The notes beneath the pieces are model-generated. The model was not told the DNA's origin. It saw only the letters and a list, made by a program, of their open reading frames with translations, and did not search any database. The position numbers and the translations under genes are program-made. Source: a virus. From it: a DNA stretch of 29,073 bases. Below are positions 3,780 to 29,073 of this stretch, piece after piece. Within the stretch, counting starts at the first letter, position 1. The number at the start of each line of letters is the position of its first letter. The DNA is taken from positions 1-29,073 of the IMG/VR virus record IMGVR_UViG_3300032213_002860; one strand, given 5' to 3'.

Positions 3780-4174
3780 TGGGATATTTTGTAAAAAACC
3801 GCCAACTTCAGAGCGGCAGCAGCGGTGTGCGACTGCCCACTGGCAGTGCAGCCAATCGTCCTGACTATCCCTTGTTTGGCATGATCCGATACAATACGGA
3901 TTCTGGCTTTTGCGAATTTTACAACGGCACTATATGGCAGAGTTTTGGCACCGGTGGAGTGGTTGCCTACACTGTGGACAGCTTTGTTGGCGACGGCAGC
4001 ACTGTGGATTACACTATCACTGTAGCACCGGCTGATGCCGAACAGATACAAGTTTTTGTTGGCAGCATATATCAAGAACCCACTGTGGCCTACACAGTCA
4101 GCGGCTTGGTCGTTACATTTACATCGGCACCGCCCAACGGCGTTCCAATCAACGTCGTTCAAACCCAAAACTAA
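3779..4174 (+). CDS. Fibre-like protein with NTAQRP-type and GDGST modules (131 aa)
   Basis: Two modules fill the protein. Residues 18-58 (LPTGSAANRPDYP, then GMIRYNTDSG and FYNGTIW) are the 'G.AAQRP..G.IRYNT..LE.Y.G..W' unit. Residues 63-131 (FVGDGSTVDYTI, VFVGSIYQEPTVAY, ending VVQTQN) are the 'GDGST..F.L...NGV.Q.P..Y' unit. The same pair, in the same order, ends the 250-aa product of the next gene and lies near residues 1145-1245 of the 1751-aa fibre. The start codon overlaps the previous stop by one base. It is probably a structural piece of the fibre or collar apparatus. No enzymatic motif is seen. Confidence 0.75.
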   Translation: MGYFVKNRQLQSGSSGVRLPTGSAANRPDYPLFGMIRYNTDSGFCEFYNGTIWQSFGTGGVVAYTVDSFVGDGSTVDYTITVAPADAEQIQVFVGSIYQEPTVAYTVSGLVVTFTSAPPNGVPINVVQTQN

Positions 4175-4956: not shown

Positions 4957-5051
4957 TCTAGCAACATCTAAAACACAGTTTTTTCCTAAAACTAGCTGGT
5001 GAGCAAATGTCTTGTTTTTACAAGGCACACAATACTTTTTGACCGGACACG

Positions 5052-5058
5052 GTAAATA
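5052..5058 (+). promoter_or_regulatory. Late promoter (GTAAATA)
   Basis: GTAAATA followed by C lies 22 nt before the ATG at 5081. A second near-match (ATAAATT, 5063-5069) lies closer to the ATG. The preceding 4957-5051 stretch shows no gene, only a weak CTTGT/ACAAG hairpin. Confidence 0.55.
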
Positions 5059-5080
5059 CTTCATAAATTGGAGAGTTGAC

Positions 5081-8000
5081 ATGGCCGTCACACGTATAAA
5101 AAATAATCAAATCACGGATGCTACATCCGGCAATACCTTCTTGGGGGTAAATGCTACCAGCAAACTGCAAGATTTCACCATCACATCTGGTAAAATAGCC
5201 AACAACTTAACTTATAATTCTAACTTGACTGTTACAGGAAATTTAACAGTCCAAGGCAACACAACCACTATTGATACCACGATCACCACCATTGAAGATC
5301 CAGTGATTCTTTTGGCATCAGGACAAACTTCAGGAACGCCTGTGGTTGACATTGGTTTTGTAGGAGCTCGAGGCGATCAAAGCAACATAGCATTTGTGTG
5401 GGACGAAAGTGCTGACGAATTTGTCACAGCTTTCACCAGCACTGGTGAAACAAATACCACAATCACTATCTCCAGCTATGCAGACTTCCATACCAGCAAT
5501 GCCAACATTGGTGGCAACATTGTAATCAACGGTACCACAAGCCTGGTAGGCAACATTGTTGGCGCTGCCAGTTTCACAGGCAACGTCACTGCCGGCAATC
5601 TCCTAACTCCGGGTTTGGTCAGTGCCGCAGGCAATGTCACAGGCGGAAACATCCGCACAGCTGGGTCGATCACAGCCACGGGAAATATTGACTCCAATGC
5701 AGTAATAACCGGCGGCGTGATACACGCAAGCAGTGGTAACATTGGTGTGCCATTTGGTGTAACTACCTTGTATCTGGGCAATAATAATCCAACAACAGTT
5801 TACATAGGTGGCGACGCCAGCAACGTTTATATTGCCAACACAAATAGTACCACCAGAATAGCTGGCAACGCAACGGTTGGAGGATTTATTAGCGCAGTTG
5901 GCAATGTCATCGGTGGCAACGTTACCACAGCAGGCCTAGTATCGGCCACAGGCAACGTCACCGGTGGAAATCTTCTATACGGAGCAGGCATCGTGTCTGG
6001 CACAGGTAATGTGTATGCTGCCAACTTTATTGGTAACATCAGTGGTAATATTGATGCTGGCGGATCCAATACCGAAGTCCAATTCAACGACAGCGATGTT
6101 TTAAATGGCAGTCCGGGATTCACATTCAACAAGGTTGGCAATGTATTGACTGCCAACGGCAACATCAACGGTGCCAATCTGTTCACAGGCGGACAGGTCA
6201 GTGCCGCAGGCAACATCATAGCCAATGCCAGCAGTTTCTTTATTGGTAACGGTAGCCAGCTTACTGGTGTAGCTGCTAGTTCAGCTGGATTTCCAATCAG
6301 CAACGGTACTTCAAATCTTAATGCCTCGGCCAATTCCAACATCACTGTTGGCGTTGCTGGTACCAGCAACGTGGCAGTTTTTGCTACTACAGGCGTATTT
6401 GTTACTGGTGTGGTCAGTGCCACTGCCAACGTAACTGGCGGTAATATCCTCACAGGTGGATTGATCAGTGCTACTGCCAACATCACCGGTGGCAATTTAT
6501 TAACTCCGGGCTTGATTTCAGCCACAGGTCTAGCCACCAGCGGCAACATTGAAACTGCAGGCTATGTCAGTGCCACAGGCAATGTGATAGCACTTGCAGT
6601 CAACACAGCAACCTTGGCCAGCTCGGGCGGGATCACTCTTGCTACAACTGGCGCCAACGGTAATATCAGTATTACACCCAACGGCACTGGCAACATCATC
6701 TTGGGTGGCAATACCTATATCAATGGTGTCAGCTTGCAACCAGTTCAAGACAACGATGTGGCCAGCAAATACTATGTTGACATCCTGGCCTCAACTGGAT
6801 TGACTGTTCATACTGCCGTGGTTGCGGCCACCACAGGCAATCTGGCCACTGCCACAGGTGGAACAATTACCTACACCCAACCCAACGGTGCCAGCAACGG
6901 TGTTGGTGCTTTGTTGACCACCACAGGTTCGTTCAATCTCATTGACACAGCCAACGTGCAGACCCTGGGCACAAGAATCCTGGTCAAGAACGAAGCCAAT
7001 GCGGTATTCAACGGTGTTTACACCTGGGCCAATGCCACAAACCTTGTTCGTTCCACAGACGCAGACCAATGGGGCACTAACAGTTCCGAGGCACTGAGCC
7101 TTAACAGCTACTTCTTTGTCACTGGTGGTAACGTCAACCTGGGTTCAGCCTATGTGGTTGATGCACCGTCGGGCATCATCACATTTGGTACCAGCAACAT
7201 TACCTTTGCTCAGTTCAGTCAAGCACAGATTTACTCAGCCAACACCTCAGCTGGTTTGATCCTGGTGGGTCAGACCTTCAGCGCCAAGGTTGACAACAAC
7301 ACCACAGCATTTGATGGCACTGGCAACATCAGCGTCAAAGCTGGCGCCAATTTAACAACGCCAAACATTGGTGCTGCCACAGGCACAAGTTTGAGTGCCA
7401 CAGGCAATATTGCTTCAGGTGGAAATCTTATTGCCACTGGCTTTGTCACTGCCACAGGCAATGTGGCTGGTGGTAACGTCACAACAGGTGGTTTAGTAAC
7501 TGCCACAGGCAACGTCACAGGTGGCAATATTCTAACCGGTGGTTTTGTAACTGCCACAGGCAATCTAGCAGGTGGCAATGTGACCACAGGCGGATTGGTT
7601 AGTTCTACAGGCAACATCACTGGTGGTAATTTGATCACTGCTGGCCTAGTAACTGCCACTGGCAATGTCACAGGTGGCAACGTCTTGACAGCAGGATTAA
7701 TTTCAGCAACTAGCACAATCACCAGTGCTGCTAATATCACAGGTGGTAATGTACTCACAGGTGGATTGATATCTGCAACCAGCAACGTCACAGGCGGTAA
7801 CTTGTTGTTTGGCAGTGGCATAGTTAGTGGTACTGGTAACATTTATGCCAACAACATATTTGCCAACATCAGCGGTAACATTGATGCAGGTGGAGCCAAC
7901 ACAAACATTCAATTCAATGACAACGACCTTTTGGCAGGCAGTCCTGGATTTACCTTTGACAAAACCAGCAACGCTGTAGTGGCCAACGGCAACATCACAG

Positions 8001-10336
8001 GCAGTAATTTCACAACCGCTGGAGTAGTTACAGCTACCGGTAACGTCACAGGTGGTAATGTACTCACAGGTGGGGCAGTCAGTGCCACAGCCAACATTAC
8101 TGGTGGTAATGTACTCACTGGTGGCTTGATTTCGGCCACTAGCACAATCACTAGTGCGGCCAACATCACAGGTGGCAACTTGCTCACTGGTGGTCTGATC
8201 AGTGCAACTAGCACAATTACCAGTGCGGCCAACATCACAGGTGGTAATGTATTAACCGGCGGTCTGATCACAGCCACAGGTAACATCACTGGTGCTAATT
8301 TGATTCTGACCACGGGCATTATTGATGGTCCTGCCAGCGGTCGTATCACCATCAATGGTTCAGACCTTGACACAGACTTTGCAGTGGATGGCGATACCTT
8401 GGCCAATGTGTTTTATGTAGATGCTGGTACAGGCACAGCCAGCTTTGGTAGCTCTACACAGGTTACCAACGCTGTTGTAAACTTTAGTACAACCACGTCA
8501 ATCAAGGTTCCAACAGGTAACACAGCACAACGTCCAGGCACCGGTGTCACAGGTATGGTGCGTTTCAATACCACCAACAACAACTTGGAATTGTATGACA
8601 ACACTGAATGGACCGCGGTGGGTGTGCCAGTGTTCACAGTCATTGCCGATGAACAGTTTGCCGGCGATGGCAGCACAGTGCAGTTCACCTTGACCAATGG
8701 TAGCCAAACAACCAATAGCTGTATCGTAAGCATTAACGGTGTGGTCCAGATCCCAACCCTGGCCTATGCAGTCTCTGGTGCAGGCGGAAACATCTTGACA
8801 TTCACAGAAGCTCCGGCAACCACAGACGTGATTGATGTGCGTGAAATCACCACAACTACCACAGTCAACTCAATTGCTAACGGACCTGGTAATGCTATCA
8901 TAGCAGTCAGCGATACCACAGCTGACGTAGTCATGACCGGCAATGTAAGTCCATCGGCCAACTTGACCTACAGTTTGGGCAATACCACAAATCGTTGGAG
9001 CAACTTATGGGTTGGTGGAAACACCATTTACCTAGGTAACTTACAACTCAAAGAAGCTTCACCTAACACATTTGCTGTGTTCACAGCAGACGGTATCACA
9101 CAGGCCAACGTGGACGTGGGCAACGTGGACGTCAGTGCTATCACTACTGGTACCAGCGTCATTGGTATCTACGGCACAGGTCAGGCCTATATCAACGTAA
9201 ACAGCAATGCCAACGTTTTATTGGCATCCAACACCAGCGTGTTGGTCAACGGTGCATTCAGTGCCACTGGCAACGTAGTAGCCACAGGTAATGTAACGGG
9301 TGGAAATATCACCACAGCTGGACTTGCGACTGTCACAGGTAATGTGATAGGTGGAAATATCACTACAGCTGGACTTGCGACTGTCACAGGTAATGTGATA
9401 GGTGGAAACATCCGTACCGCAGGTCTAATCACAGCCACCGGCAACATCACAGGTGGAAACTTGGTCACAGCCGGCAATCTAACAGCTAACGGTCTTACTG
9501 TGAACTCCGATGCTGTTATAACAGGTAACTTGACAGTCAATGGTACAACAACTACTATCAATTCTAACACAATTACCACAAACGACTTGCAAATCAGCGT
9601 TGCTAACAATGCAGCCAGCGCCGCGCAAGCCAACAATGGTGGTCTTGAAGTTGGCCCATTAAGTGGTCCTTACATCACTTGGCTGTACAACAACTCGGCC
9701 AACAGCTGGGTATCAAGTGCTGGAATTAGTGCTGTAGGTAACATTTCTACTGGTGGCAATTTGAGCATTGTTGGAAACATTGTTGACACAGGCCCACTGA
9801 CTATCAGTACTTCAAGCAATGGCAATATCACACTAGCGCCAAATGGCACAGGAGTGATTGTGGTCAACGCTGACATACGCAATGGTCAGGCCAATGCCAC
9901 GGGCAACATTGGTGCCACTGCAGCACGTTTCAACACTGTGTTTGCTCTAGCAACATCAGCACAATACGCTGACTTGGCAGAGAAATATGCCGCAGACGCA
10001 GACTATGCTCCGGGTACAGTGGTCATGTTTGGCGGCTCAGCTGAAGTTACCTTGTGTGTGAACGATGGTTGTTCCAGAGTGGCAGGTGTGATTTCAACCA
10101 ACCCCAGCTACAGGATGAACGATGGCTTGCAAAGTGAATACACTGCCATGGTAGCATTAACTGGACGTGTGCCCACAAGCGTAACAGGTACAGTTCGCAA
10201 AGGCGACATGATGGTCAGTGCCGGCAATGGTGTAGCACGGGCCGAAGCCAATCCAGCGGTAGGCACAGTGATCGGCAAAGCCTTGGCTGACAGCGAAGGC
10301 GACGCAGTGATAGAAGTGGTAGTTGGTCGCGTTTAA
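5081..10336 (+). CDS. Giant repeat-rich tail fibre protein (1751 aa)
   Basis: The largest gene of the window. I chose the ATG at 5081 (MAVTRIKNNQITDATSG) because it has GGAGAG upstream and a typical fibre N terminus; the frame is open 69 bp further upstream without support. Modules in order: GNLTVQGNTTTI near 54-65; VYIANTNSTTRIAG near 248-261; QFNDSDVLNGSPGFTF near 333-350; DNDVASKYYVD near 557; RILVKNEANAVFNGVY near 632; a 17-residue repeat (ATGNVTGGNILTGGL type) over about 770-920 and 970-1080; a second QFND module near 944; NTAQRPG and GDGST modules at 1145-1245; YSLGNTTNRWSNLWV near 1297; another GNLTVNGTTTTI near 1482; and a C-terminal domain from ADLAEKY (1631) to the end. It is probably an extended trimeric host-recognition fibre. 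The N-to-C virion orientation is inferred. Confidence 0.88.
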   Translation: MAVTRIKNNQITDATSGNTFLGVNATSKLQDFTITSGKIANNLTYNSNLTVTGNLTVQGNTTTIDTTITTIEDPVILLASGQTSGTPVVDIGFVGARGDQSNIAFVWDESADEFVTAFTSTGETNTTITISSYADFHTSNANIGGNIVINGTTSLVGNIVGAASFTGNVTAGNLLTPGLVSAAGNVTGGNIRTAGSITATGNIDSNAVITGGVIHASSGNIGVPFGVTTLYLGNNNPTTVYIGGDASNVYIANTNSTTRIAGNATVGGFISAVGNVIGGNVTTAGLVSATGNVTGGNLLYGAGIVSGTGNVYAANFIGNISGNIDAGGSNTEVQFNDSDVLNGSPGFTFNKVGNVLTANGNINGANLFTGGQVSAAGNIIANASSFFIGNGSQLTGVAASSAGFPISNGTSNLNASANSNITVGVAGTSNVAVFATTGVFVTGVVSATANVTGGNILTGGLISATANITGGNLLTPGLISATGLATSGNIETAGYVSATGNVIALAVNTATLASSGGITLATTGANGNISITPNGTGNIILGGNTYINGVSLQPVQDNDVASKYYVDILASTGLTVHTAVVAATTGNLATATGGTITYTQPNGASNGVGALLTTTGSFNLIDTANVQTLGTRILVKNEANAVFNGVYTWANATNLVRSTDADQWGTNSSEALSLNSYFFVTGGNVNLGSAYVVDAPSGIITFGTSNITFAQFSQAQIYSANTSAGLILVGQTFSAKVDNNTTAFDGTGNISVKAGANLTTPNIGAATGTSLSATGNIASGGNLIATGFVTATGNVAGGNVTTGGLVTATGNVTGGNILTGGFVTATGNLAGGNVTTGGLVSSTGNITGGNLITAGLVTATGNVTGGNVLTAGLISATSTITSAANITGGNVLTGGLISATSNVTGGNLLFGSGIVSGTGNIYANNIFANISGNIDAGGANTNIQFNDNDLLAGSPGFTFDKTSNAVVANGNITGSNFTTAGVVTATGNVTGGNVLTGGAVSATANITGGNVLTGGLISATSTITSAANITGGNLLTGGLISATSTITSAANITGGNVLTGGLITATGNITGANLILTTGIIDGPASGRITINGSDLDTDFAVDGDTLANVFYVDAGTGTASFGSSTQVTNAVVNFSTTTSIKVPTGNTAQRPGTGVTGMVRFNTTNNNLELYDNTEWTAVGVPVFTVIADEQFAGDGSTVQFTLTNGSQTTNSCIVSINGVVQIPTLAYAVSGAGGNILTFTEAPATTDVIDVREITTTTTVNSIANGPGNAIIAVSDTTADVVMTGNVSPSANLTYSLGNTTNRWSNLWVGGNTIYLGNLQLKEASPNTFAVFTADGITQANVDVGNVDVSAITTGTSVIGIYGTGQAYINVNSNANVLLASNTSVLVNGAFSATGNVVATGNVTGGNITTAGLATVTGNVIGGNITTAGLATVTGNVIGGNIRTAGLITATGNITGGNLVTAGNLTANGLTVNSDAVITGNLTVNGTTTTINSNTITTNDLQISVANNAASAAQANNGGLEVGPLSGPYITWLYNNSANSWVSSAGISAVGNISTGGNLSIVGNIVDTGPLTISTSSNGNITLAPNGTGVIVVNADIRNGQANATGNIGATAARFNTVFALATSAQYADLAEKYAADADYAPGTVVMFGGSAEVTLCVNDGCSRVAGVISTNPSYRMNDGLQSEYTAMVALTGRVPTSVTGTVRKGDMMVSAGNGVARAEANPAVGTVIGKALADSEGDAVIEVVVGRV
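7390..8320 (+). repeat. In-frame 51-bp / 69-bp coding repeat array
   Basis: About a dozen tandem units encode a 17-residue consensus such as VTATGNVTGGNILTGGL. A 23-residue form (LISATSTITSAANITGGNLL plus TGG) occurs at 7697-7765, 8126-8194 and 8195-8263. The array is interrupted at about 7850-7990 by a QFND module. Units differ mostly at third codon positions, which suggests selection on the protein plus gene conversion. One repeat may equal one turn of a beta-helix; that is inference. Confidence 0.85.
9299..9400 (+). repeat. Near-perfect 51-bp tandem duplication
   Basis: Units 9299-9349 and 9350-9400 each encode GGNITTAGLATVTGNVI and differ by one synonymous base (ACC versus ACT). A third, diverged unit (GGNIRTAGLITATGNIT) follows. 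This looks like a recent slippage or recombination event that keeps the frame. Confidence 0.9.
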
Positions 10337-19001: not shown

Positions 19002-19781
19002 ATGACAGCACAAAGCACCCAAGCCCAAAACAGCCTAGAAACACTCAAACAACAACTGTTTGATTATGTGCGCCTGACCCTGGGTGATCAGATTGTGGAT
19101 CTTGAACTGGATGCCGAACACTACGAAGCAGCTTATCAAAGGACCATTGGTGTGTATCGTCAACGAGCACAAAATGCCTATGAAGAAAGCTATACCTTCA
19201 TGGAACTTGTGACCAATGTCAATATCTATACCTTGCCTCAAGAAGTTATCAGTGTGCGACAGATCTTTCGTAGAACTTTTGGTGACTCGACCGGTCCATT
19301 TGCCAGTAACTTTGATCCGTTTAGTCAAGCCAGCATGAATGTGTATCTCATGAACTTCAACGTGGCCGGAGGTCTTGCCACTTATGATTTTTATAGCCAG
19401 TACGTGGAACTGGCTGGGCGCATGTTTGGTGCCTACATGAACTATACTTGGAATCCTGTGACCAAGAAACTGCAACTGATTCGTGATCCCAAAGGCACCG
19501 GTGAAAACGTTCTACTTTGGACCTACAACTTGAAACCCGAGTTCAATCTCCTGCAAGATTTCCAGATACAACAATGGCTCCGCGACTACATGGTAGCCGC
19601 CTGCAAAATGATCATCGGCGAAGCCCGAGAAAAATTTGGAATGTATGCTGGCCCACAAGGCGGTAGCCAACTCAACGGCACACAACTCAAAACCGAAGCA
19701 CAGACACAAATGGACAGCCTGATCGAGCAACTCAAAAACTATGTAGACGGCAGCCAACCCATCACGTTCGTCATAGGTTAA
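19002..19781 (+). CDS. gp13: Neck protein (T4 gp13-like)
   Basis: 259 residues; T4 gp13 has 309. The start LKQQLFDYVRLTLGDQIVDL (15-34), then AEHYEAAYQRTIGVYRQRAQ and EESYTFMELVTNVNIYTLPQ, follows the gp13 pattern of a short helical N terminus that introduces the connector-binding fold. The later segment YVELAGRMFGAYMNYTWNPV with LQLIRDPKGTGENVLLWTYN, and the C-terminal LRDYMVAACKMIIGEAREKF, also fit the family. In T4 gp13 binds the portal ring after DNA packaging and recruits gp14. Here it is separated from gp14/gp15, which lie on the other strand. The start has a GGAG site in a hairpin loop and a late promoter upstream. Confidence 0.82.
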   Translation: MTAQSTQAQNSLETLKQQLFDYVRLTLGDQIVDLELDAEHYEAAYQRTIGVYRQRAQNAYEESYTFMELVTNVNIYTLPQEVISVRQIFRRTFGDSTGPFASNFDPFSQASMNVYLMNFNVAGGLATYDFYSQYVELAGRMFGAYMNYTWNPVTKKLQLIRDPKGTGENVLLWTYNLKPEFNLLQDFQIQQWLRDYMVAACKMIIGEAREKFGMYAGPQGGSQLNGTQLKTEAQTQMDSLIEQLKNYVDGSQPITFVIG

Positions 19782-21391: not shown

Positions 21392-24300
21392 ATGGCACTA
21401 TTATCACCTGGCGTAGAAGTTACCGTAATTGACGAAAGTCAATATCTTCCTGCTGCGACAAACTCAGTCCCGTACATTCTGATTGCCACAGCACAGAACA
21501 AGATCAGTGGCACCGGAGCTGGAGTAGCCGCAGGAACGTTGCAGGCTAATGCTAACAAGATATACACCATTACCAGTCAGCGAGATCTTTCAGCGACTTT
21601 TGGTGTGCCGTTCTTTTACAAGACCACAGCTGGCACTCCGATCAATGGGTATGAACTCAACGAATACGGACTTTTGGCCGCTTATAGTGCCCTAGGTACC
21701 ACCAACAGAGCTTTTGTGCAACGTGTGGACATTGACCTTGCAGAATTAACAGCCAGCTTGGTACGCCCAACTGGTGCTCCTGACAATGGAACCTATTGGT
21801 TAGACACAGCCAACACTCAGTGGGGAATTTTCCAATGGAATCTGACCACAGCATCGTTTACCAATCAGATACCTTTGGTCATAACCAGCACCGATGATCT
21901 TGAGTCTAATTCTTCAGTGCCTTTGCAAAGTCTCGGCGCAATTGGTGACTATGCCATTGTAACTACCAACATCAACAATCCGGGCTATTTCAAGCGTGGC
22001 GGTCCTTTCGCAGGACAGTCGTCCTCGAGCTATCTAACAGCGTTGTATAATACCTGGGTACAGATAGGATCAGATGACTGGAAAACAGCTTGGCCAACCA
22101 TACAAGGCAACAACACCATAGACGGCCTTGCAGCTGGTTCTATTTCCATCAACGGAACCATCGTGTCGGTGCCAGCCAGTCCAAACAACACTGCAGAGGG
22201 ATTAAGCAATGCTATCAACTCGGCCGCTATCACCGGAGTTTATTCGGGTCATCTCAATGACAAAGTGGCCATATATGCCACCAGCGAAGCCACTGCCGAC
22301 GGCAGCACAGCCGGCGAAGGAGCCGTTGATATTAGCAACTACAGTGGTGATGTGTTGTCAGAATTGGGCATCACAGCCAACACCTACTATGCTCCTGCAT
22401 TCCTGGCAGATTACAGCTACAACGTGCCTAGATGGAGGTCCACGGATACCCAACCAGAACCTACTGGTTCGGTCTGGCAGAAGATCAACAATGTGAATCT
22501 TGGTGCCAATTTGGTGACCAAGAAATACAATTCAGCCCTTGGCAGATTCGTGCAACAAAATTGCCCAATTTATACCAATACCAATGAAGCCATATATGAG
22601 CTGGATCCATCGGGTGGCGGCAAAAATATTCCAGCTGGTACCTTGATGGCCCGTATCGATTCTGAATATGACGGCACCTTGACCCAGGATATCTTTGAAA
22701 GATATGCCACCGGACCGGCAGTATACACAGGCAGTGACACTTCACCTGGTCCGTTTGTGATTGGAAATTCGTACACCATATCGGCCAGCATTCCAGGAAA
22801 CCCAATTGAAGATGATATCGCCACAGTGACCTTGACCAGCACAACCTTGGACAGTTTCTTGATCAGAACACAAGGTGCCATTGGAGCTTCACCATTTGCC
22901 AGTTATGTGACTGTGACTGTCAATTCAGCTGGTTCTGTTGTGTTCACACACCTTGCTGGTGGAAACATCACACTGACCAACGTCACAGGTCAACCGCTGA
23001 CAGCAGCTGGTTTCACAGTCAGCACAGAATTTGCAAGACCTGCTCCTGACAATGGCATATTCCTGAGCTATTTTGTCAGCACTCCAACTTTCACCTACAC
23101 ACCCAGCGCAACAGAGCCTGATCAAGATCCAGATTCCGGAACCTATTGGTACTATTCTACTACCACCCAGGCCGATATCATGATCCAGAACAACGGTGCC
23201 TGGTTTGCATATCAAAACGTCAGCAATGATGTGCGCGGTGACAATTTGACCTTGACCAATGCCAGTGGTCCAATCTTCAGTGCCACAGCGCCTGTGACTC
23301 AGAACAACACAGCGCAAAGTCCATTGGTCTACGGTGATCTATGGATCGACACTGGTGATCTTGAAAATTATCCCATGCTGTATCGCTGGAGCAACATACA
23401 AGGAACGGATCAATGGGTATTGATCGACAACACTGATCAGACCACAGAAAATGGTATCTTGTTTGCAGATGCACGCTGGTCTTCTAACGGCACTACCAAT
23501 CCGATCACAGATCCTATTCCGTCGATCTCCAGTTTGCTGACCAGCAACTATCTGGACATTGATGCACCAAATCCTGGACTGTATCCGCAAGGAACCTTGT
23601 TGTTCAACACACGCCGTAGTGGATTCAACGTCAAGAGTTTCCAGGTTGACTATTTCAACACAGCAGACTTCACAGTTGATGCCTGGGACAACACAACAAC
23701 CTATGCATTCAATGACTTTGTGAACTACAACGGTACAATTTATGTTTGCATACTGGCACCCACGGCCAATCAGAATCCCACAAACAACACCTACTGGGCT
23801 GAAATTGAAACCAACTCCTGGGTCACTGCCAGCGCCAACAAAGACGACGGTAGCCCCAACATGGGTCGCCTGGCACAGCGTTACTTGATTGTACAGGCAC
23901 TGAAATCTGGCATAGACAGCAGCGTAGAAATACGTGAAGAGCAACGCCAGTTCAATCTGATAGCCTGCACAGGATATCCAGAATTGATCCCCAACATGGC
24001 CTTGCTCAACAATGATCGCAAGAACACAGCTTTTGTGGTAGGTGATACTCCAATGCGCTTGCCGCCCACAGGAACCACTATCATTGATTGGAAGAACAAT
24101 GCTCAGCAAACAGATGAAGGATTGACTTCATACGATGCCTACATTGGTGTGTTCTACCCAAGTTGCCAAACCACAGATCTATCAGGCACAGCAGTAGTGA
24201 CTGCACCTAGCCACATGATGGTCAGAACCATAATCCGCAACGACGAAGTGGCGTTTCCATGGTTGGCTCCAGCAGGAACACGTCGTGGTGTTATTGACAA

Positions 24301-24817
24301 CGCGGCCAGACTTGGTTACATCAATGCTGTGACCGGTGAATTTGAAACCATTGGTGTTAATCAAAGCCTGAGAGACGTGTTGTATCAGAACGATATCAAC
24401 CCAATCACTTTTGTACCTGGCATTGGTATCACCAACTTTGGTAACAAGACCACATTGGGAGCCGACACTGCCCTGGATCGTATCAACGTGGCACGTTTGG
24501 TTGCATTTATCCGTGCAAGATTACAACAAATTGGTGACAACTTCTTGTTCGAACCCAACGATCAGATCACCCGCAATGAAATCAGGAATGCTGTGGACAG
24601 TCTCATGATTGACTTGGTCAACAAGCGCGGTATCTATGATTATCTAGTTGTTTGTGACTTGACCAACAATACACCTGCACGTATTGATGCCAATGAATTA
24701 TGGTTGGATATTGCTATCGAGCCTGTCAAGGCCGTTGAATTTATCTACATACCGATGCGTATCAAGAACACCGGTGAAATTGCCACAAGCCTGGCAGTGA
24801 CAGCACAGTCGGCTTAA
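21392..24817 (+). CDS. gp18: Tail sheath protein (T4 gp18-like), enlarged
   Basis: 1141 residues; T4 gp18 has 659. The N-terminal domain (LLSPGVEVTVIDESQYLPAA at 3-22, then SVPYILIATAQNK) and the C-terminal domain are sheath-like: residues from about 815 include AQRYLIVQALKSGIDSSVEI, CTGYPELIPNMALLNNDRK, WLAPAGTRRG, INPITFVPGIGITNFGNKTT, RINVARLVAFIRARLQQIGD and EPVKAVEFIYIPMRI. Sheath subunits form the contractile tube around gp19. About 700 residues (125-815) are inserted between these ends. They contain DNGTYWLDTANTQWGIFQWN and DPDSGTYWYYSTTTQADIMI modules and, near 763-806, a carbohydrate-binding-5/12-like unit (AWDNTTTYAFNDFVNYNGTI with YW after it). Such insertions would project from the sheath surface. 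Confidence 0.93.
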   Translation: MALLSPGVEVTVIDESQYLPAATNSVPYILIATAQNKISGTGAGVAAGTLQANANKIYTITSQRDLSATFGVPFFYKTTAGTPINGYELNEYGLLAAYSALGTTNRAFVQRVDIDLAELTASLVRPTGAPDNGTYWLDTANTQWGIFQWNLTTASFTNQIPLVITSTDDLESNSSVPLQSLGAIGDYAIVTTNINNPGYFKRGGPFAGQSSSSYLTALYNTWVQIGSDDWKTAWPTIQGNNTIDGLAAGSISINGTIVSVPASPNNTAEGLSNAINSAAITGVYSGHLNDKVAIYATSEATADGSTAGEGAVDISNYSGDVLSELGITANTYYAPAFLADYSYNVPRWRSTDTQPEPTGSVWQKINNVNLGANLVTKKYNSALGRFVQQNCPIYTNTNEAIYELDPSGGGKNIPAGTLMARIDSEYDGTLTQDIFERYATGPAVYTGSDTSPGPFVIGNSYTISASIPGNPIEDDIATVTLTSTTLDSFLIRTQGAIGASPFASYVTVTVNSAGSVVFTHLAGGNITLTNVTGQPLTAAGFTVSTEFARPAPDNGIFLSYFVSTPTFTYTPSATEPDQDPDSGTYWYYSTTTQADIMIQNNGAWFAYQNVSNDVRGDNLTLTNASGPIFSATAPVTQNNTAQSPLVYGDLWIDTGDLENYPMLYRWSNIQGTDQWVLIDNTDQTTENGILFADARWSSNGTTNPITDPIPSISSLLTSNYLDIDAPNPGLYPQGTLLFNTRRSGFNVKSFQVDYFNTADFTVDAWDNTTTYAFNDFVNYNGTIYVCILAPTANQNPTNNTYWAEIETNSWVTASANKDDGSPNMGRLAQRYLIVQALKSGIDSSVEIREEQRQFNLIACTGYPELIPNMALLNNDRKNTAFVVGDTPMRLPPTGTTIIDWKNNAQQTDEGLTSYDAYIGVFYPSCQTTDLSGTAVVTAPSHMMVRTIIRNDEVAFPWLAPAGTRRGVIDNAARLGYINAVTGEFETIGVNQSLRDVLYQNDINPITFVPGIGITNFGNKTTLGADTALDRINVARLVAFIRARLQQIGDNFLFEPNDQITRNEIRNAVDSLMIDLVNKRGIYDYLVVCDLTNNTPARIDANELWLDIAIEPVKAVEFIYIPMRIKNTGEIATSLAVTAQSA

Positions 24818-27079: not shown

Positions 27080-27523
27080 ATGCCCAATTTCCGTCAAGGC
27101 ATCTACACAGTAAAAAATCAGCAGAAATATGTGGGCAGGAACAGTCCGCGATATCGCAGCGGTTGGGAAATGACTTTCATGATGTTTCTTGACAACAACG
27201 ACAACATCGTAAACTGGGCCAGTGAAAGTATCAGCATACCCTATCGTAATCCCATCACCGGAAAGTCCAGCAACTATGTGCCGGATTTTTTTGTGACCTA
27301 TAGAGATCGCAACAACAAAACTCGTGCTGAGCTGATAGAAATCAAGCCCAAAAAACAAAGCCTGATCGAAAGCAAAATGTCTGATCGTGATCGTGCTGTG
27401 GTAGCAGTAAACTATGCCAAATGGGATGCTGCCACCAAATGGGCCCGGCGCAACGGACTCACATTCAGAGTCATCAACGAAGATCAAATATTCCATCAGG
27501 GCAGCAAAAAAACCGGTAAATAG
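27080..27523 (+). CDS. gp4: Head completion protein, nuclease fold (T4 gp4-like)
   Basis: 147 residues; T4 gp4 has 150. GIYTVKNQQKYVGRNSPRYR at 7-26 with SGWEMTFMMFLDNNDNIVNW matches T4 NIKNKKKYVGTVFPQYRSLW and ERRFMMWCDTNPDVIQW. A PD-(D/E)XK-type active site is visible as P68-D69 and E87-x-K89 (YVPDFF...ELIEIKPKK). T4 gp4 is needed to finish heads before tail joining, probably acting with gp50 and gp65. Its nuclease role in T4 is inferred from fold. The stop TAG overlaps a TAAATA element that lies too close to the next ATG to serve as its promoter. Confidence 0.9.
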   Translation: MPNFRQGIYTVKNQQKYVGRNSPRYRSGWEMTFMMFLDNNDNIVNWASESISIPYRNPITGKSSNYVPDFFVTYRDRNNKTRAELIEIKPKKQSLIESKMSDRDRAVVAVNYAKWDAATKWARRNGLTFRVINEDQIFHQGSKKTGK

Positions 27524-27526
27524 GGT

Positions 27527-28015
27527 ATGATCCGACGTTTAGAAGAGCTGTTTGATTTACCGCCCTCAGGTTGCGAAAGCGAAACCACAGAACCTGCCAC
27601 GGTTCCTGCCACCCAAATCCAGCTTCAAGAAATTGACGCTACCATAGACAAGATTGATCAAGCACTGCCAGCAGTGCGTGGTCTAGATGCGTCGGATGCA
27701 GAAATGGATGAGTTGGCCAACAAAGCTCAAGAAACCTTTGATAACTTGATGGATTTAGGCTTCAATGTAGACAGCAGATATGCTAGTGAAATATTTGCAG
27801 TAGCTGGGACCATGCTAGGCCATGCACTCACAGCCAAGACTGCCAAGCTGAACAAAAAGCTCAAAATGGTCGAACTACAAATGAAAAAAGTCAAATTGGA
27901 TCGTGATGCACAAGGTGACGAACCCACACAAACAGCTCATGGCCAGGTGCTGAGTCGTAACGACCTGCTGGAAATGATAAAAGGGTCCAAGGACCAAAAC
28001 AATACAAAAGCATAA
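27527..28015 (+). CDS. gp16: Terminase small subunit (T4 gp16-like)
   Basis: 162 residues; T4 gp16 has 164. The order of elements fits gp16: a polar N terminus, a helical centre (ANKAQETFDNLMDLGFNVDS near 64-83, YASEIFAVAGTMLGHAL, then KLNKKLKMVELQMKKVKLD as a coiled coil), and the Gln/His-rich tail HGQVLSRNDLLEMIKG. T4 gp16 oligomerises and regulates the large terminase gp17 during DNA packaging. Unlike in T4, the large terminase does not follow directly; two unrelated genes come next. The ATG lies 3 nt after the gp4 stop. The stop TAA is part of the late promoter of the next gene. Confidence 0.82.
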   Translation: MIRRLEELFDLPPSGCESETTEPATVPATQIQLQEIDATIDKIDQALPAVRGLDASDAEMDELANKAQETFDNLMDLGFNVDSRYASEIFAVAGTMLGHALTAKTAKLNKKLKMVELQMKKVKLDRDAQGDEPTQTAHGQVLSRNDLLEMIKGSKDQNNTKA

Positions 28016-28036: not shown

Positions 28037-28645
28037 ATGAAAAATTTTCAAGAATACCTGGCCGAAAGCCAAAGAACTTACAACTACAGGATCAAAATTG
28101 TAGGTGATGTTGAGCCCGCCTTGGTCAAAATGCTAGAAGAAAAGCTCAAGCAGTTTGATCCGGTCAAAGTGTCAGCTGTGAAAAAGACACCCATACAGCT
28201 CAAGCCAGCAGACTTTCCTGCACACGCCAACGAAAGCGTCAGTGCCATGGATTGCGAATTCCGCTATCCGGCCATCGAGCCACAGATCCAACAAATTGCT
28301 CAACTCTTAGGACTTGATCCAAACCGTATCCGTTTGTTGACCACGGCCTATGAAGACAGCATGATGGATGAAAAAGAAAAGATTGAAGATCAAAACAAAG
28401 ACCTGTTGACCGACACAGACTATCCTGCTCCTGACGCAGAACAAAAGGCACTCAGCAAAGATTACTCAGCACCTTATGACCAGCATGCTGTGTTGAAGAA
28501 TGCCTATCGCAGTGAGTTTACTGTGGCTGGTGGCAAAACACCGCCTGCCAAAACCACAAATGATTTGCCAATGGGCACTTCAAGTCCCATGACAAAAGTA
28601 AAACGCCCACCACGTCCAGCCACCGGCGCCAACCCAAGAGGATAA
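28037..28645 (+). CDS. Possible head-targeted protein with capsid-targeting N terminus (202 aa)
   Basis: The N terminus MKNFQEYLAES closely parallels the capsid-targeting sequence of T4 internal proteins (MKTYQEFIAEA). LAE followed by Ser fits the T4 prohead protease rule (L/I-x-E, cut after Glu). The rest (residues 15-202) has an alpha/beta half (YRIKIVGDVEPALVKMLEEK, DCEFRYPAIEPQIQQIAQLL) and a disordered Pro/Lys-rich tail. I do not recognise the domain. It follows gp16 under its own late promoter, a head-gene context. It may be an internal head, core or injected protein. No catalytic motif is visible. Confidence 0.6.
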   Translation: MKNFQEYLAESQRTYNYRIKIVGDVEPALVKMLEEKLKQFDPVKVSAVKKTPIQLKPADFPAHANESVSAMDCEFRYPAIEPQIQQIAQLLGLDPNRIRLLTTAYEDSMMDEKEKIEDQNKDLLTDTDYPAPDAEQKALSKDYSAPYDQHAVLKNAYRSEFTVAGGKTPPAKTTNDLPMGTSSPMTKVKRPPRPATGANPRG

Positions 28646-28649
28646 CAGC

Positions 28650-29073
28650 ATGACATTTTTTTACGACCTAAACAAGAAATTGGCCACACTGTCGGCCAAG
28701 CAACAGCTTGCAGAAAGTGCTCAGCCAGTGGCTGAACGTAGCACTGGAGACTACTCAGCCAAGAAGGCACGTGCTGGCAAAGACATTGGCAAGCCAGGAA
28801 AAATGTTTTCTAAGATTGCCAAGAGTGCAGGCGAGCGTTATGGCTCCAAAGAAGCCGGTGAACGTGTAGCCGGTGCTGTGTTGAACAAGCTACGTAGCAA
28901 AAATGAATCAACCGATCAAGATGGCGACGTAATGGATTATCTTAACGACAAATTAAAAGATTTTGATGCACAACAATCCAAGACTGACGAATCTGCATTG
29001 CAAGCATATTTGGGCAAGAAAAAATACGGCGAGACCGGCATGAAGGCCCTGCAAAAGGCCGGACGTGAGGGCG
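28650..29073 (+). CDS. Partial gene, probably head/core-associated
   Basis: Starts with ATG at 28650 (MTFFYDLNKKLATLSAKQQL), 4 nt after the previous stop, and stays open to the window edge for 141 residues. The sequence is Lys/Ala/Glu/Ser-rich and helical, with GERYGSKEAGERVAGAVLNK near 63-82, then LRSK, and QAYLGKKKYGETGMKALQKA near the edge. LAES at 20-23 again fits the T4 prohead-protease site rule. The composition is that of scaffold/core or internal proteins, but the C-terminal part is missing, so no product can be assigned. A weak GAT-rich leader precedes the start. Confidence 0.6.
   Translation, partial: MTFFYDLNKKLATLSAKQQLAESAQPVAERSTGDYSAKKARAGKDIGKPGKMFSKIAKSAGERYGSKEAGERVAGAVLNKLRSKNESTDQDGDVMDYLNDKLKDFDAQQSKTDESALQAYLGKKKYGETGMKALQKAGREG

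What the first reader, a model, noticed from the sequence alone, without database searches (positions are those of the whole stretch)
28037..28072. T4-like capsid-targeting sequence on an unassigned protein
MKNFQEYLAES aligns position by position with T4 internal-protein targeting peptides (MKTYQEFIAEA) and has an L-x-E prohead-protease site. It predicts packaging of this protein inside the head and cleavage after residue 10. The next gene also has LAES (residues 20-23). Internal proteins of T4 are injected to counter host defence, so this may be an undescribed injected effector.
Basis: partly seen in the sequence, partly recalled or inferred. Interest (0 to 1): 0.65.

Follow-up and report, generated by a model that had tools for sequence, protein, structure and literature searches.

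The report
Capsid-targeting tag on jumbo-phage head protein
A conserved virion protein of uncultured giant phages starts with a short peptide that looks like the address label phage T4 uses to load proteins into its head before a phage protease cuts it off, so the protein is probably head cargo, but it looks like a standard part of the particle rather than a newly discovered weapon against the host.

Summary
ORF 28037-28645 starts MKNFQEYLAES. Against T4 IPII/IPIII (MKTYQEFIAEA) 6 of 11 residues are identical and the rest are mostly conservative. In 81 clade members M1, K2, F4, Y7, L8, E10 and S11 never change. Positions 4 and 7 are the T4 targeting positions, and 8 and 10 the processing positions. 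Chance is excluded: 5 hits among 999 gene starts in three relatives against 0.13 expected, and none at 4170 internal Met codons. Both longest relatives (337 and 320 kb) encode a gp21-type protease beside portal, scaffold and capsid genes; the scaffold is rich in LxE sites. A second, unrelated protein two genes downstream carries the same leader.

Syntenic orthologs occur in RaK2-, GAP32-, CBB- and PA5oct-type jumbo phages, and two were detected in virions (CBB_210; PA5oct EST35_0202). So this is a conserved late virion protein (phrog_14802), not an undescribed injected effector. The hydrophobic leader is deeply conserved, but the P1 glutamate is not (E, D, S or A in orthologs), so cleavage is probably lineage-specific. 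Targeting, cleavage and injection remain untested for this protein.

The parts
28037..28645 (+). Virion protein gene (202 aa), phrog_14802-like, ortholog of PA5oct EST35_0202 and CBB_210
   Evidence: 174 relatives in IMG/VR
28037..28066 (+). Capsid-targeting-like leader MKNFQEYLAE (residues 1-10); predicted cut after Glu10, mature start Ser11
   Evidence: T4 mutagenesis summarised in PMC9026906
28079..28342 (+). Predicted ferredoxin-like (beta-alpha-beta-beta-alpha-beta) domain, residues 15-102
   Evidence: AlphaFold2 model of residues 1-140, mean pLDDT 71, block means 72-87 for residues 11-100; leader residues 4-9 below 50; Foldseek
28454..28642 (+). C-terminal low-complexity basic/proline tail (residues 140-202), conserved within the clade, not in RaK2-type orthologs
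   Evidence: low pLDDT
28011..28018 (+). CATAAATA, T4-late-promoter-like element 26 nt before the ATG; CATAAATA in 76/81 and ATAAATA in 81/81 relatives
27080..27523 (+). gp4-like head completion/closure protein (context)
   Evidence: phrog_218 E=6e-40, PF08722 E=2e-21
27527..28015 (+). Terminase-small-subunit-like protein (context)
   Evidence: phrog_445 E=8e-6, phrog_16202 E=5e-14
28650..29073 (+). Next gene (open at window end; ~630-640 aa in relatives) with LAES at residues 20-23 (28707-28718); LxE-type sites enriched in its full-length relative
   Evidence: 7 sites observed vs 2.3 expected, 6 of 1000 shuffles reach 7

Best explanation
The ORF encodes a late, conserved virion protein of T4-superfamily jumbo phages. 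Its first 10 residues act as a T4-type capsid-targeting leader: the hydrophobic face (F4, Y7, L8) docks the precursor onto the prohead core, it is enclosed, and in this clade the gp21-type protease cuts after L-A-E10. This frees the mature protein (Ser11 onward: a ferredoxin-like domain plus a basic proline-rich tail) inside the head. Shown by sequence: the leader, its constraint, the protease genes and the LxE-rich substrates. Shown experimentally by others: virion presence of two orthologs. Inferred: core docking, cleavage, and location inside the head rather than at the neck.
For: Leader matches T4 ipII/ipIII. M1, K2, F4, Y7, L8, E10 and S11 are invariant in 81 members while positions 3, 5, 6, 9 and 12 vary, with synonymous change at L8, S11 and Y7. 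T4 work: residues 4 and 7 govern targeting, 8 and 10 processing, and Asp10 blocks cutting but not targeting (PMC9026906). PF03420 protease in 6 of 14 relatives' contigs, including the 337, 320 and 228 kb ones; in the 337 kb record it stands beside portal, gp67-like, scaffold and MCP genes, and the scaffold has 12 LxE[ASGT] sites vs 2.7 expected. The same leader M-K-x-L-x-[DE]-Y-[ILM]-x-E-[STA] is found on an unrelated protein two genes downstream in 30 of 31 matched ORFs. Virion detection of orthologs: PA5oct EST35_0202, noted ESI-MS/MS; CBB_210, 13 peptides, 60.5% coverage (PMC5259590). The leader is the least confident part of the domain model, as expected of a detachable tag.
Against: No proteomics exists for this uncultured clade. 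The P1 Glu is not conserved in orthologs (Asp, Ser, Ala), although those phages also have gp21 and LxE-rich substrates, so the leader has a role that does not need cutting there. Virion detection does not separate head from neck or tail. The gene sits beside gp4 and TerS-like genes, which would also suit a connector role.
Confidence: 0.7

Rival explanations
1. The N-terminal helix is a permanent docking element of a neck/head-completion or tail protein, not a capsid-targeting leader; the L-x-E-S of this clade is part of that interface and is not cut.
For: Helix residues 4, 7 and 8 are hydrophobic in the orthologs while Glu10 is not kept; the gene is usually next to gp4 and TerS-like genes.
Against: In the clade E10 and S11 are invariant in 81 of 81; an unrelated neighbour carries the same leader with E10 kept, which a protein-specific interface would not explain; the T4-tuned pattern is very rare at gene starts.
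Confidence: 0.2
2. A T4 IPI-like injected effector that counters host defence.
For: T4 internal proteins share the leader and at least IPI is an injected anti-restriction protein (PMC9026906; PMC3012670).
Against: The ORF is a syntenic gene conserved between phages of very different hosts, whereas T4 internal proteins are highly diverse (PMC3012670); no similarity to a defence inhibitor was found in Pfam or PHROGs, and the fold is generic.
Confidence: 0.06
3. A prohead core (scaffold) protein of the gp67/gp68 kind that is chopped up and expelled during maturation.
For: Leader plus head-gene context; gp22- and gp67-like genes lie in the same genomes.
Against: The CBB ortholog is recovered from virions at 60.5% coverage; gp22- and gp67-like genes are already present elsewhere in the relative's genome; a folded domain is predicted.
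Confidence: 0.04

Closest known systems
T4 internal proteins IPII/IPIII (capsid-targeting sequence plus gp21 cleavage)
   Same: 10-residue N-terminal leader with K2, aromatic 4 and 7, hydrophobic 8, A9, E10; gp21-type protease in related genomes
   Different: Mature part is a conserved, syntenic structural protein, not a variable one; P1' is Ser; targeting and cleavage not shown
phrog_14802 / PA5oct EST35_0202 / CBB_210 / GAP32_204 / RaK2 ORF047 / XaC1_279 virion structural protein
   Same: Ortholog by sequence and by gene order (tube - gp4 - TerS-like - this gene); gap-free alignment over the leader from residue 1
   Different: Window clade has invariant L-x-E-S and a basic proline-rich C-terminal tail; several of these have Asp, Ser or Ala at position 10
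T4 gp24 and gp23 propeptides
   Same: L-x-E sites in the N-terminal region, for example gp24 MAKINELLRES
   Different: These are capsid shell proteins; no relation to this ORF was found

Membership tests
T4-type capsid-targeting sequence (IPIII class) | About 10 N-terminal residues with hydrophobic residues at 4 and 7 (targeting) | tested here: met
   F4 and Y7 in 81 of 81; hydrophobic at 4 and 7 in the distant orthologs aligned
T4-type capsid-targeting sequence (IPIII class) | [L/I]-x-E processing site ending at residue 10 | tested here: met
   L8 and E10 in 81 of 81 of the clade; not kept in all outside orthologs
T4-type capsid-targeting sequence (IPIII class) | Cognate gp21-type (S77) prohead protease in the genome | tested here: met
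   PF03420 in 6 of 14 relatives' contigs, including the 337, 320 and 228 kb ones; the window itself is a 29 kb fragment and does not reach that gene
T4-type capsid-targeting sequence (IPIII class) | Leader directs a protein into the prohead and is removed | not testable with these tools
   Needs fusion assay or N-terminal proteomics
T4-type capsid-targeting sequence (IPIII class) | Same leader on otherwise unrelated proteins of the genome | tested here: met
   Protein two genes downstream in relatives, 30 of 31 matched ORFs
T4 internal protein (injected, host-specific effector) | Variable mature domain, patchy presence | tested here: not met
   Whole protein 72-98% identical in the best 80 clade members and orthologous across jumbo phage genera
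phrog_14802 virion structural protein | Profile match and gene order | tested here: met
   E=8e-6 over residues 1-131; synteny
phrog_14802 virion structural protein | Present in virions | tested here: inconclusive
   Only for orthologs: PA5oct and CBB_210; none for this clade

The most novel reading that the evidence does not exclude
T4-type capsid-targeting leaders are a general, exchangeable cargo code in uncultured T4-superfamily jumbo phages: they sit on a conserved head protein as well as on variable cargo proteins (the MKxLxDYxxES and MRAREFxxE types), and cleavage can be gained or lost at one residue (E10 to D, S or A) while targeting is kept.
Probability: 0.35. Interest if true: 0.65.

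Novelty: new variant of a known kind. Interest (0 to 1): 0.42.

Why it matters
If right, the leader gives a sequence handle on which proteins uncultured giant phages carry inside their heads, a set that is otherwise found only by virion proteomics. It also offers a natural test of a T4 mutagenesis result: Asp at position 10, which in T4 allows targeting but blocks processing, is the natural state in several RaK2-type orthologs.

Tried and rejected
Genome-contig search for prophage or cellular relatives: none. Sequence search of solved structures: no relative. First AlphaFold2 model with clade sequences only was poor (pLDDT 55); a wider alignment gave 71. Foldseek hits to ribosomal S6 and PII-like proteins reflect a common fold and were not read as function. 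A whole-record DNA pattern search for the leader was too restrictive to be useful. The idea that the phrog_7595 domain is always leader-tagged was rejected: only 5 of 80 match the pattern and some copies have no leader at all. CATAAATA is not over-represented genome-wide (16 observed, about 16 expected in the 337 kb record); only its placement before genes supports a late promoter.

Full report
What is there. The ORF at 28037-28645 (+) is a 202-residue protein with a conserved ATG and a GGG-containing ribosome-binding region. It lies in a T4-like structural module: tail sheath (21392), tail tube (24875), a second tube-like protein (25504), a small protein (26712), gp4-like head completion protein (27080), a terminase-small-like protein (27527), then this ORF and a long gene cut by the window end. 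The window is a 29 kb virus fragment. 174 relatives were found in IMG/VR, the best 80 at 72-98% identity, some on contigs of 228-337 kb, so it comes from a jumbo phage group.

The leader. MKNFQEYLAES aligns without gaps with MKTYQEFIAEA of T4 IPII and IPIII, read here from the T4 record. In 81 clade members residues 1, 2, 4, 7, 8, 10 and 11 never vary, while 3, 5, 6, 9 and 12 do. Codon usage at L8, Y7 and S11 varies while the residue does not. Review of T4 work (PMC9026906): positions 4 and 7 carry targeting, 8 and 10 processing, and Asp at 10 blocks processing but not targeting. The fixed positions of the family therefore include the functional positions of the T4 signal.

Chance. A T4-tuned pattern finds only ipII, ipIII and gene 61.1 in T4, and 5 gene starts of 999 in three relatives against 0.13 expected; no internal Met codon of 4170 matches. 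All five are this ORF or the protein two genes downstream.

Machinery. A gp21-type protease (PF03420, E about 1e-24 to 1e-28) is present in 6 of 14 relatives' contigs, including the three longest. In the 337 kb record it stands between a gp67-like acidic protein and an LxE-rich scaffold, followed by the major capsid protein (these names rest on gene order and sequence character). The scaffold has 12 LxE[ASGT] sites against 2.7 expected (0 of 1000 shuffles). The contigs without a hit are fragments, and the window does not reach this region.

A second carrier. The protein two genes downstream (off the window; for example L016 12539-13282) begins M-K-[TSA]-L-[KRQ]-[DE]-Y-[ILM]-x-E-[STA] in 30 of 31 matched ORFs (some of them overlapping records of one contig), with mature parts of variable length and no visible relation to this ORF. 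The same kind of leader on unrelated proteins is what T4 IPII and IPIII show.

Orthologs in isolates. tblastn walks from the ORF to PA5oct and Phosso, then to RaK2, GAP32, CBB, Munch, XaC1, Vibrio phage 2.275, Atu_ph07 and others. In most the gene follows the gp4-like and TerS-like genes. The PA5oct protein is marked ESI-MS/MS, and CBB_210 was detected with 13 peptides and 60.5% coverage (PMC5259590). So the family is a known virion component. The leader aligns from residue 1 in all, with hydrophobic residues at 4 and 7 and hydrophobic or aromatic at 8, but position 10 is E (CBB, GAP32, Vibrio, Atu_ph07), D (RaK2, Hallingskeid, fEgEco12, SNUABM12), S (Munch, Phosso) or A (PA5oct, XaC1). All 12 isolates have the protease. 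In 11 of them the genes next to it include a scaffold with 10-19 LxE-type sites against about 3-4 expected and an MCP with LTES/LTEG-like propeptide sites; for Atu_ph07 the fetched stretch did not show them. So the non-E orthologs are probably not cut there.

Fold. With a wider alignment AlphaFold2 gives mean pLDDT 71 for residues 1-140, with block means of 72-87 for residues 11-100 and the leader residues 4-9 below 50. The topology is ferredoxin-like, with S6/PII-type structures as nearest solved folds; this says little about function.

Reading. The best-supported account is a late head protein with a T4-type targeting leader that is cut in this clade. The injected-effector reading is weak, because the gene is a conserved syntenic structural gene. 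A docking helix without targeting function is the main rival.

Noticed in passing
L016:12539-13282 (two genes downstream of the ORF, off the window): Unrelated protein with the same leader (MKSLKDYITES), variable length in relatives, C-terminal phrog_7595 domain; a better candidate for variable head cargo than the ORF itself.
   Followed up: partly
L016:14259-14630, L023:14826-15221, L025:15207-15596, L011:13471-13839: Small ORFs starting MRAREF[ILV]xE downstream of the structural module, 58 distinct copies in the loci, no Pfam or PHROG match for those tested; a possible shorter form of the leader.
   Followed up: partly
L201, L212, L213, L218 (phrog_7595 domain loci): The same small domain (EYQGRxVxLxKxM...) occurs bare (MAEYQGRK) or behind leader-like peptides such as MKTFKEYMISEA or MKTYREFVTEA, as if leaders were added to a mobile cargo domain.
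   Followed up: partly
T4 NC_000866, gene 61.1 (minus strand, start at 19130): Uncharacterised 54-aa T4 protein begins MKTFKEFIKED, matching the capsid-targeting pattern.
   Followed up: no
21392-24817: Tail sheath of 1141 aa with a weak carbohydrate-binding module match (PF02839, residues 764-798, just below cut-off).
   Followed up: no
L142 (Atu_ph07 FDI40_gp113) and L144 (RaK2 ORF047): Annotated starts look wrong: Atu_ph07 should start about 30 codons earlier (MKTLQDYLTES), RaK2 later (MINLQKILTDN).
   Followed up: yes
28650-29073 and L016:10590-12539: Next gene (about 640 aa in relatives, DUF3008 domain) usually has an LxES-like site near residue 20 and more LxE-type sites than expected; possibly a processed prohead-core or head protein.
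   Followed up: partly
5012-10336: Very long ORF (1774 aa) of repeated ATGNVTGGN-like units, probably a tail-fibre-type protein.
   Followed up: no
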